Positions 42,126 through 43,714 of a stretch of 64,000 nucleotides of DNA are shown here, piece after piece. This DNA is from Paracoccaceae bacterium (GTDB lineage: Bacteria > Pseudomonadota > Alphaproteobacteria > Rhodobacterales > Rhodobacteraceae), in the NCBI GenBank assembly GCA_014654775.1, contig JACVZW010000030.1, forward strand, positions 124,001 to 188,000. Reading direction: 5' to 3'. A model generated the notes under the pieces. It saw nothing but the letters and a program-made list of their open reading frames with translations, did no database searches and had not been told where the DNA came from. Position 1 is the stretch's first letter; each line of letters opens with the position of its first letter. The position numbers and the translations under genes were made by a program.

Positions 42126-43714
42126 AGCTCACCCTCTGGACCTATGAAGGCCCGCCCCATGTGGGGGCAATGCGCGTGGCGACCGGCATGAAGGGGCTGC
42201 ATTACGTGCTGCACGCCCCGCAGGGCGACACCTATGCCGATCTGTTGTTCACCATGATCGAACGCAGGAACCACCGCCCGCCGGTCACCTTCACCACCTT
42301 TCAGGCGCGCGACCTTGGCGCGGACACGGCCAACCTGTTCAAGGACAGCGCCCGCGACGCCTATGCCCGCTTCCAGCCGCAGGCGATGATCGTCGGCGCC
42401 TCCTGCACCGCCGAACTGATCCAGGACGATCCCGGCGGTCTGGCCGAGGCGCTCGGTCTACCCATCCCCGTGATCCCGCTGGAACTCCCCTCCTACCAGC
42501 GGAAAGAGAATTTCGGCGCAGACGAAACCTTCTTCCAGATCGTCAAGGCACTGGCCAAGCCGATGCCCCGGACTGAAGCGATCACCTGCAACATCCTTGG
42601 CGCGACCGCACTCGGCTTCCGCCACCGCGATGACGTGGCCGAGGTGACGAAACTCCTTGGCCTGATGGGCATCGCCGTCAACGTGGCCGCCCCGATGGGC
42701 GCGACCCCCGCCGACATCGCCCGCATGGGGCAGGCGCATTTCAACGTGCTGCTCTACCCCGAAACGGGCGAAACCGCCGCGCGCCACCTCGAACGCGCCT
42801 GTGGTCAGCCCTATACCAAGGTCGTTCCCATCGGCGTCGGCGCGACCCGCGATTTCCTGCATGAAGTCAGCGGCATAACAGGCCTTTCTCCGAAAGTGGA
42901 TGAATCCGGCCTGCGCCTGCCCTGGTGGTCGGCATCGGTGGATTCGACCTACCTCACCGGCAAGCGCGTCTACATCTTCGGCGATGCCACCCATGTGATG
43001 GCCGCCGCCCGCATCGCCGCGACCGAGATCGGGTTCGAAGTCTGTGGCATGGGCTGCTTCAACCGCGAATTCGCCCGCCCCCTGCGTGCCGCGGCCAAAG
43101 CCTATGGCGTCGATCCCCTGATCACCGACGACTATCTAGAGGTAGAGGCCGAAATCGCCCGCCTGCAGCCCGAACTGATCCTCGGCACGCAGATGGAACG
43201 CCATATCGGCAAACGCCTCGGCATCCCCTGCGCCGTCATCTCCTCCCCCGTCCATGTGCAGGACTTCCCCGCCCGCTATTCGCCCCAGATGGGGTTCGAA
43301 GGCGCGAATGTGATCTTCGACACATGGATCCACCCCCTCGTCATGGGGCTGGAAGAACACCTCCTCACCATGTTCCGCGAGGATTTCGAATTCCACGACG
43401 AGGCCGGGGCCAGCCATCATGGGGCAAAGGCCACAGCGCGGGTGGAAGCCGAGGAACTGGGGGTTTCACACCCCCAGACCCCCGTGGGATACTTGAGAAC
43501 AGATGAAGACACGGACGAGACGCGGGAAATCCCGGTCGTCACCCCTGCGGGCGAGGTTCTCTGGCTGCCCGATGCCGAACGCGAATTGAAGAAGATCCCC
43601 TTCTTCGTGCGCGGCAAGGCCAAGCGCAACACCGAGAAATACGCCGCCGACCGTGGCGTGACCAAGATCAGCGTCGACACACTCTACGAGGCCAAGGCCC
43701 ATTATGCGCGATGA
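42122..43714 (+). CDS. bchB: light-independent protochlorophyllide reductase subunit B
   Basis: A 530-residue DPOR beta subunit. The N-terminal catalytic part starts [18 protein letters not shown] and contains [15 protein letters not shown] and [11 protein letters not shown]; the C-terminal small domain [28 protein letters not shown] binds substrate. Between them is a variable linker. Here the linker encodes [17 protein letters not shown] from an in-frame dispersed DNA repeat (43459-43509). It overlaps bchH by 11 bases. Confidence 0.97.
43459..43509 (+). repeat. dispersed palindromic repeat inside bchB, in frame
   Basis: A GGGGG-TTTCACA-CCCCC hairpin is followed by AGACCCCCGTGGGATACTTG and an ACAGATGAAGA tail. 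The same order (hairpin, GACCCCC(G), GGGATA-TT, GACAGA-GA) recurs at 59359-59405 in a non-coding gap. Here it adds about 17 codons to the BchB linker without a frameshift. Confidence 0.65.

What the first reader, a model, noticed from the sequence alone, without database searches (positions are those of the whole stretch)
43459..43509. Dispersed palindromic repeat captured in frame inside bchB
About 51 bases of the bchB linker have the same order and most bases of the non-coding element at 59359-59405. It encodes [17 protein letters not shown] between the catalytic and C-terminal domains, where length varies in the family. This resembles in-frame palindromic elements of Rickettsia and suggests a mobile repeat shaping a core photosynthesis enzyme.
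Basis: partly seen in the sequence, partly recalled or inferred. Interest (0 to 1): 0.7.

Follow-up and report, generated by a model that had tools for sequence, protein, structure and literature searches.

The report
Dispersed DNA hairpin inside photosynthesis gene
A short hairpin-forming DNA repeat that normally sits between genes in one family of bacteria is also found, still in reading frame, inside a key bacteriochlorophyll-making gene and two other genes, where the bchB copy appears to keep being rewritten to match other copies in the same genome.

Summary
Window 43457-43509 (bchB) is a full copy of a dispersed ~52-bp element: stem-loop, C-run, TATTT core, GATGAAG-like tail. The genome has at least 72 model hits; nine other places match the bchB query at E 1e-18 to 1e-8. 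The cited 59359 copy is a more distant member.

The family is in 31 of 41 sampled Rhodobacteraceae genomes (own included); in a class-wide sample only 2 of 153 genomes match, both of this family. No RAYT-type transposase passes the cut-off in 19 genus genomes. The stem covaries.

The bchB copy codes for a linker predicted to be disordered. It is in 9 of 18 BchB-bearing genus genomes and, in another frame, in linkers of other genera.

Capture is not unique to bchB: the same frame (PGVSHPRTPVGYL) occurs in a CocE/NonD hydrolase and in a Paracoccus MOSC protein, whose homologues show a clean 24-codon empty site.

The capture is not recent: sites persist between species while stem, loop and tail are rewritten towards each genome's own variants (3 of 20,000 permutations). 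I favour a REP-like element tolerated in a flexible linker and overwritten by ectopic gene conversion. Present mobility and effect on the enzyme are unshown.

The parts
42122..43714 (+). bchB, subunit B of light-independent protochlorophyllide reductase (530 aa)
   Evidence: ORF; PF00148 and PF08369; TIGR01278 593 bits; homologous chains with solved structures, e.g. 8vqi, 3aek, 2ynm
43457..43509 (+). In-frame copy of the dispersed element (residues 446-463 of BchB)
   Evidence: R2 69.6 bits, E 3.8e-18 (this copy is not among R2's 47 training rows, though it is among R1's 11); BLAST to nine other places
43457..43477 (+). Stem-loop CTGGGGGT / ACCCCCAG, loop TTCAC; its second pair is U-A where most copies have C-G
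   Evidence: fold; pair counts in 47 copies and in 9 bchB copies
43478..43494 (+). C-run and conserved core ACCCCCGTGGGATACTT
   Evidence: alignments of copies
43495..43509 (+). Tail GAGAACAGATGAAGA; its first 14 bases occur in four other fetched copies of the same genome (second commonest of the variants counted)
43349..43546 (+). Region coding for residues 410-475, predicted disordered
   Evidence: AlphaFold2, pLDDT < 50 at residues 410-475
59357..59404 (+).
   Evidence: R2 57.3 bits; gene calls; TIGR03408 and TIGR03409 above cut-off; same site and orientation in 17 of 18 genus genomes
35259..35284 (-). Probable remnant of the element, in the gap between genes called at 34283-35131 and 35317-35925
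   Evidence: R2 21.9 bits, E 1.5e-4, 26 bases; not inspected further

Best explanation
The bchB insert is a copy of a REP-like dispersed palindromic element of Rhodobacteraceae sensu lato. Normally it lies between genes and close to their ends. An ancestor of part of this genus acquired a copy in the sequence for the flexible linker of BchB. It survived because one forward frame of the element is usually free of stops and the linker tolerates almost any sequence (shown: in frame, predicted disordered, variable between species; inferred: tolerance). Since then the copy has stayed in place but been overwritten by other copies of the same genome through short-tract ectopic gene conversion, and only replacements whose length changes by multiples of three persist (shown: genome-typical variants, intact stem with changed amino acids, a +3 variant; inferred: gene conversion as the mechanism). 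Comparable captures happened in at least two other proteins (a CocE/NonD hydrolase and a MOSC protein). How first copies arise is unknown; no RAYT transposase passes the cut-off.
For: Family: 72 own hits, three overlapping called genes by more than 20 bp; stem covariation 0.210 against 0.071 in shuffles (0 of 500) and at most 0.045 when slid. Capture: 9 of 18 genus BchB genes; linker pLDDT < 50; that forward frame is stop-free in 38 of 45 own copies examined. Other hosts: CocE/NonD in three genomes, one partial, with a gap at that point in two outside homologues; MOSC in five Paracoccus records, four aligned, with a 24-residue gap in the three homologues aligned. Rewriting: bchB tails resemble other copies of the same genome more than those of other genomes (3 of 20,000 permutations by mean, 90 of 20,000 by best match, 8 genomes); among bchB copies 7 of 74 stem cells changed on both sides (0 of 500 shuffles) while the residues changed; variants also switch at the urtC/urtB site.
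Against: Copies for the permutation test were fetched by similarity searches, unevenly (66 from the window's genome, 3-12 from the others); the tail is only 14 bases and relatedness between genomes was not modelled. Evolution of all copies with a shared binding factor would give the same pattern. On the nine bchB copies two of five measures are not above shuffles (pairs changed on both sides 263 of 500, pair types 231 of 500). The bchB capture has no clean empty site: linkers with and without it have similar lengths. The 13 linker tails read outside the genus are all forward and in one frame, which loose tolerance alone does not predict, because reverse frames are at least as often open.
Confidence: 0.7

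Rival explanations
1. The element is kept in bchB because it acts in the mRNA: stem-loop and tail set stability, processing or ribosome flow between bchB and bchH, and the peptide is incidental.
For: Every linker tail read is forward, and a pattern for reversed tails finds 0 of 98, although reverse frames are at least as often open; stem kept with paired changes among bchB copies; reversed copies recur at the bchN/bchB junction in 16 of 80 loci.
Against: Absent from 9 of 18 genus BchB genes and by my criteria from 73 of 98 rows; stem broken in G018 and, by one pair, in G017; in the window's genome copies lie in both orientations between co-directional genes, 24 sense and 21 antisense.
Confidence: 0.15
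2. Repeated fresh insertion: the linker is a hot spot and each species' version is a new insertion rather than an overwritten old copy.
For: The linker state changes at least 15 times on the BchB tree, at least 6 of them forced by well-supported branches (gains and losses not told apart); genus and non-genus copies use different frames.
Against: Within the genus the copies share left flank (by eye), orientation and frame; the urtC/urtB site shows the same pattern of fixed site and orientation with changing sequence in 17 of 18 genomes.
Confidence: 0.2
3. No repeat: a GC-rich linker that resembles a common hairpin by chance or through protein-level selection.
For: The linker is variable across the family.
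Against: E 1e-18 to another copy; R2 E 3.8e-18 in 64 kb; 17-mer 11 times against 0 for the reversed pattern; paired stem changes alter the residues.
Confidence: 0.02

Closest known systems
REP / GTAG- and CGTC-tagged palindromes, including reported intragenic REPs (PMC3733652, matched passages read)
   Same: Short palindromes, predominantly between unidirectional or convergent ORFs and near gene ends; some lie inside ORFs, and that paper argues such insertions may be neutral in modular proteins.
   Different: No GTAG tag and no clear CGTC excess (5 of 47 against 8.5% background); no PF01797 protein over the cut-off in 19 genus genomes; a conserved ~30-base one-sided tail after the palindrome. 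The main text has no occurrence of Rhodobacter, Roseobacter or Paracoccus.
Rickettsia-specific palindromic elements (RPE; PMC2229807, matched passages read)
   Same: Dispersed palindrome whose open frame is fused in frame into conserved proteins and tolerated.
   Different: RPEs are 105-146 bp with terminal inverted repeats and were seen in 19 reading frames; this element is ~52 bp, with three host proteins found here, in Rhodobacteraceae.
REP evolution by gene conversion (Higgins et al. 1988, seen only as a reference title)
   Same: Raises gene conversion as a way in which dispersed palindromes evolve.
   Different: Here the homogenisation appears to include a copy that codes for part of an enzyme.

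Membership tests
REP (repetitive extragenic palindrome, broad sense) | Short, palindromic, many similar copies, mainly extragenic | tested here: met
   72 hits, 69 of them without more than 20 bp overlap with a called gene; covarying stem. Length ~52 bases exceeds the 14-40 nt given for E. coli
RAYT-mobilised REP/REPIN | A TnpA_REP / Y1 transposase in the genome | tested here: not met
   PF01797: 0 of 19 genus genomes over the cut-off, one below it (G007, 21.3 bits); 5 of 14 control genomes ring
GTAG- or CGTC-tagged REP | Tetranucleotide tag at one end | tested here: not met
   GTAG 0 of 47 at either end; CGTC 5 of 47 at the 5' and 2 of 47 at the 3' end, background 8.5% per 14-base stretch
Rickettsia palindromic element (RPE) | 105-146 bp with terminal inverted repeats, in Rickettsia | tested here: not met
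   ~52 bp, one stem plus a one-sided tail; found in Rhodobacteraceae
Protein-coding palindromic element (functional analogy) | Dispersed palindrome read in frame inside conserved proteins, with homologues that lack it | tested here: met
   BchB, CocE/NonD, MOSC; translation itself not shown
Intrinsic terminator | GC stem followed at once by a T-run; placed sense downstream of genes | tested here: not met
   No terminator-like call at the bchB copy; 12 bases lie between stem and TACTT; 24 sense against 21 antisense between co-directional genes
Known Rfam RNA family | Match at the gathering score | tested here: not met
   None in the window; on the stretch only two matches far below gathering, E 0.17 and 0.62
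MITE | Terminal inverted repeats, target-site duplication, related IS | tested here: inconclusive
   Element ends are not inverted repeats of each other by eye; no obvious duplication at the MOSC site by eye; IS relatives not searched

The most novel reading that the evidence does not exclude
The amino-acid sequence of the BchB linker is set not by selection on the protein but by a genome-wide pool of a non-coding repeat: ectopic gene conversion repeatedly writes each species' current repeat variants into the coding copy, filtered only for reading frame. This would be concerted evolution crossing from intergenic DNA into an enzyme.
Probability: 0.45. Interest if true: 0.75.

Novelty: new variant of a known kind. 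Interest (0 to 1): 0.62.

Why it matters
In-frame palindromes have been described from Rickettsia, Wolbachia and some REP families. Here an abundant repeat family, for which I saw no description in my paper searches, has been read into three unrelated proteins, one of them a core photosynthesis enzyme. A clean empty site and many sister genomes make it possible to ask directly whether repeat homogenisation can drive protein sequence change, and how a repeat without a recognisable RAYT transposase persists across a bacterial family.

Tried and rejected
Chance or GC bias: rejected. Recent insertion: rejected by shared sites. RAYT-driven REP: no transposase over the cut-off. GTAG/CGTC tag: no clear excess. 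Phage origin: no match in 50,697 records. Terminator and Rfam: see the membership table. Promoter: one sigma-70-like match (TTCACA-17-GATACT, 9 of 12; shuffle mean 0.0) overlaps the bchB copy, but element versions with a CCA loop lack the first hexamer, so I do not take it as the family's function.

Results that cut against my reading, or limit it: in the class sample one of the three listed genomes of this family had no hit (131 of 153 rows are not listed), and 10 of 41 family genomes had none, under stricter filters. Hit counts per genome are lower bounds, because 150 candidates at most were scored. In one search one of five measures (pair types) was reached by 20 of 500 shuffles; two of five were at shuffle level. 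Junction and linker elements coincide in 6 of 80 loci where two sets of 16 would give 3.2; I did not treat that as meaningful. Four of the 80 genome contigs BchB cores are identical to genus rows, so the 98 rows are not all independent.

Judgements and slips: gene calls come from a home-made codon-usage caller trained on this window. Two apparent gene starts inside elements (L304 and L315) I judged wrong starts and did not count as captures. The longest-open-frame rule misplaced bchN's end in L140 (corrected). In one search the pattern mis-picked the tails of G000 and L156 and found none in G018; G000's frame is read, L156 and G018 are not scored there, and L209 is a weak case. One search left out G018, which had two other copies.

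Literature: ten searches; in the listings shown (30 of 1,251, 20 of 71) I saw no title or abstract describing this family in Rhodobacter, Roseobacter or Paracoccus. Only open-licence papers are held. Of four papers I read matched passages, of the rest only listings. PMC7948495 gave nothing on the BchB linker in the passages shown.

Full report
WHAT IS THERE. The stretch lies in bchB (42122-43714, 530 aa), between the nitrogenase-like domain (PF00148, residues 12-406) and the small PCP_red domain (PF08369, residues 481-525). Window 43457-43509 reads CTGGGGGT-TTCAC-ACCCCCAG, a C-run, GTGGGATACTT and GAGAACAGATGAAGA. A 111-base query finds nine other places in the 4.52-Mb genome at E 1.0e-18 to 1.1e-8. 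A covariance model R1 built from 11 copies, bchB copies included, gives 72 hits at E <= 0.01, a lower bound because 150 of 3811 first-look candidates were scored.

ANATOMY. The stem is real as base pairing: 99.1% of cells paired in 47 copies, five of eight pairs with changes on both sides, covariation 0.210 against 0.071 in shuffles and at most 0.045 when slid. Loops vary in sequence and length. The C-run after the stem follows the stem's own run: of 47 copies that my pattern parsed, four of four with G4 carry C4, two of two with G6 carry C6, and the four with GGGAGGG are followed by ACCCACCC. Of the 72 hits, three overlap called genes by more than 20 bp: bchB (sense, whole element) and two antisense near the 3' ends of ORFs of 155 and 179 aa. 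The other 69 lie between called genes or touch them by a few bases: 24 sense and 21 antisense between co-directional genes, 14 convergent, 7 divergent, 3 with no called gene on one side.

RANGE. R1 hits occur in all 19 genomes of the genus: 2 in a 1.5-Mb genome, 48 to 146 in the others. R2 hits occur in 31 of 41 sampled genomes of the family, own included, each of a different genus, and in 2 of 153 genomes of a class-wide sample, both of this family. That the family is Rhodobacteraceae is inferred from named relatives. In named plasmids the consensus matches 18 of 72,556 records: 16 Paracoccus, one Gemmobacter, one Thalassococcus. Phages: none of 50,697.

THE bchB SITE. Of 19 genus genomes 18 have bchB. 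Nine carry the element in the linker (G000, G007, G018, G001, G005, G012, G017, G015, G002) and nine do not (the G005 gene is cut by a contig end just after the element). All nine use one frame. G002 and G015 have one more G and one more C in the stem and one more C in the spacer, +3 in all, so the stem still pairs and the frame is kept, while the first residues change from GVSHPQ or GVLHPR to GGFTPPA. Among the nine, two outer stem pairs changed on both sides (7 of 74 cells, covariation 0.235 against 0.054, 0 of 500 shuffles each; the number of such pairs and of pair types is not above shuffles). These changes alter amino acids (L..Q, A..R, P..R). G018 and, by one pair, G017 have lost pairing. 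Structure prediction from 38 sequences (mean pLDDT 76.7) puts residues 410-475 below pLDDT 50. The peptide pattern is in 11 of 98 linkers, all with the element.

OTHER GENERA. Of 98 BchB genes (18 genus, 80 from genome contigs; four of the latter have cores identical to genus rows), 25 have the element or its core in the linker by model hit or pattern; the state changes at least 15 times on a quick tree of the catalytic part, at least 6 of them forced by well-supported branches. The 13 non-genus tails read use GAT ATT T, AGT ATT T or a close variant, one frame away from the genus copies, and a pattern for reversed tails finds none in 98. Of 45 own copies, forward frames are open in 32, 38 and 11, reverse frames in 41, 41 and 33, so uniform orientation is not explained by stops. 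On the 80 loci (508 kb) R2 has 26 hits at E <= 0.01: 10 in the bchB linker (+) and 16 just upstream of bchB (-), none elsewhere. Of the 16 junction copies 14 lie in a 55-112 bp gap, L140 also proves intergenic, and in L163 (Tateyamaria sp. syn59) the bchN frame runs through the element. A named plasmid record with the element core in the bchB linker is Thalassococcus sp. S3 pS3A (WP_130410201.1).

OTHER HOST PROTEINS. In G014 and G013 a CocE/NonD hydrolase (TIGR00976, 9.9e-69 for the G014 protein) carries AGVSHPRTPVGYLSQDEG or, in G013, AGVSHPRAPVGYLSQDEG inside its PepX_C region; G006 has the same downstream part on a contig that ends just upstream of the element. Homologues from Pseudorhodobacter turbinis and Pseudooceanicola algae have 12 and 11 gap columns there. 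In Paracoccus ferrooxidans pFER4 a MOSC/YiiM-type protein (WGR63574.1; PF03473 4.5e-37) carries PGVSHPRTPVGYLENGE; orthologues at 90-99% are in P. versutus (two records), P. pantotrophus and P. denitrificans. Four of these five were aligned (the fifth has the peptide); P. alcaliphilus, Ciceribacter and Azospirillum homologues lack 24 residues at exactly that point. All three proteins use the same frame, the forward frame most often free of stops. Captures are rare: of 104 distinct genus copies fetched, 10 lay in called genes, 8 of them bchB copies fetched on purpose.

CONCERTED CHANGE. The 14 bases after TATTT fall into variants typical of genomes or groups of genomes (for example AACAGATGAAG in G000, ACGGATGAAG in G005 and G001, CAAAGGTGAAG in G012). 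Across eight genomes with three or more other copies, the bchB tail resembles the other copies of its own genome more than those of others: 0.650 against 0.584 mean identity; 3 of 20,000 permutations reach the observed value by mean and 90 of 20,000 by best match. Within-genome identity between the other copies is 0.657 (389 pairs) against 0.545 between genomes (5606 pairs), G000 left out. At the urtC/urtB site (window 59357; genes named) 17 of 18 genomes have the element in the same place and orientation (R2 E 0.002 or better; none in G016), yet loop and tail classes differ between sisters, and G015 has there the same 14-base tail as in its bchB. A stable place with switching sequence is what gene conversion between dispersed copies would give; co-evolution with a binding factor would too.

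HOW IT WORKS, IN MY VIEW. Shown: dispersed family, in-frame copies, conserved pairing, old shared sites, genome-typical variants. Inferred: tolerance in a disordered linker, gene conversion as the homogeniser, a three-base length filter in coding copies. Unknown: how new copies arise (no RAYT over the cut-off) and what the intergenic copies do.

COMPARISON. REPs inside ORFs are described in PMC3733652, which argues that they may be neutral in modular proteins (passages); in-frame Rickettsia elements, 105-146 bp, are reviewed in PMC2229807 (passages). The family described here fits the broad REP description but fails the RAYT and tag tests, so I call it REP-like, not a member of those classes. 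My searches showed no report of it (listed under Tried and rejected).

Noticed in passing
L134, L140, L154, L159, L163, L169, L173, L180, L185, L187, L194, L196, L198, L201, L202, L207, just upstream of bchB: Reversed copies of the element recur at the bchN/bchB junction (16 of 80 loci), mostly in a gap where other species overlap the two genes; in L163 (Tateyamaria sp. syn59) the reversed element codes for the end of bchN.
   Followed up: partly
own-genome copies; window 43457-43483: The C-run after the stem tracks the stem's own run (G4 with C4, G6 with C6, GGGAGGG with ACCCACCC), as if stem and spacer were copied or paired together.
   Followed up: partly
L175, L176, L185, L201, L206 linkers; G000 C9:13778: A two-hairpin version has a second palindrome between the G/C stem and the CCCCC-GATATTT core (by eye).
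   Followed up: no
window 43465-43493: A sigma-70-like promoter match (TTCACA-17-GATACT, 9 of 12, with TG) overlaps the element; copies with a CCA loop lack the first hexamer.
   Followed up: partly
window 35259-35284 (-): Weak partial match to the element in an intergenic gap (21.9 bits), perhaps a remnant.
   Followed up: no
BchB linkers of L148, L150, L168, L177, L179, L180, L192, L193, L198, L199, L202, L207: Another recurring linker motif, GGSMPP or a close form, in BchB of several genera, mostly without the element's core; unexplained (by eye).
   Followed up: no
L039 (G005 contig C107): The G005 contig ends just after the bchB element, as an assembly break at a repeat might.
   Followed up: no
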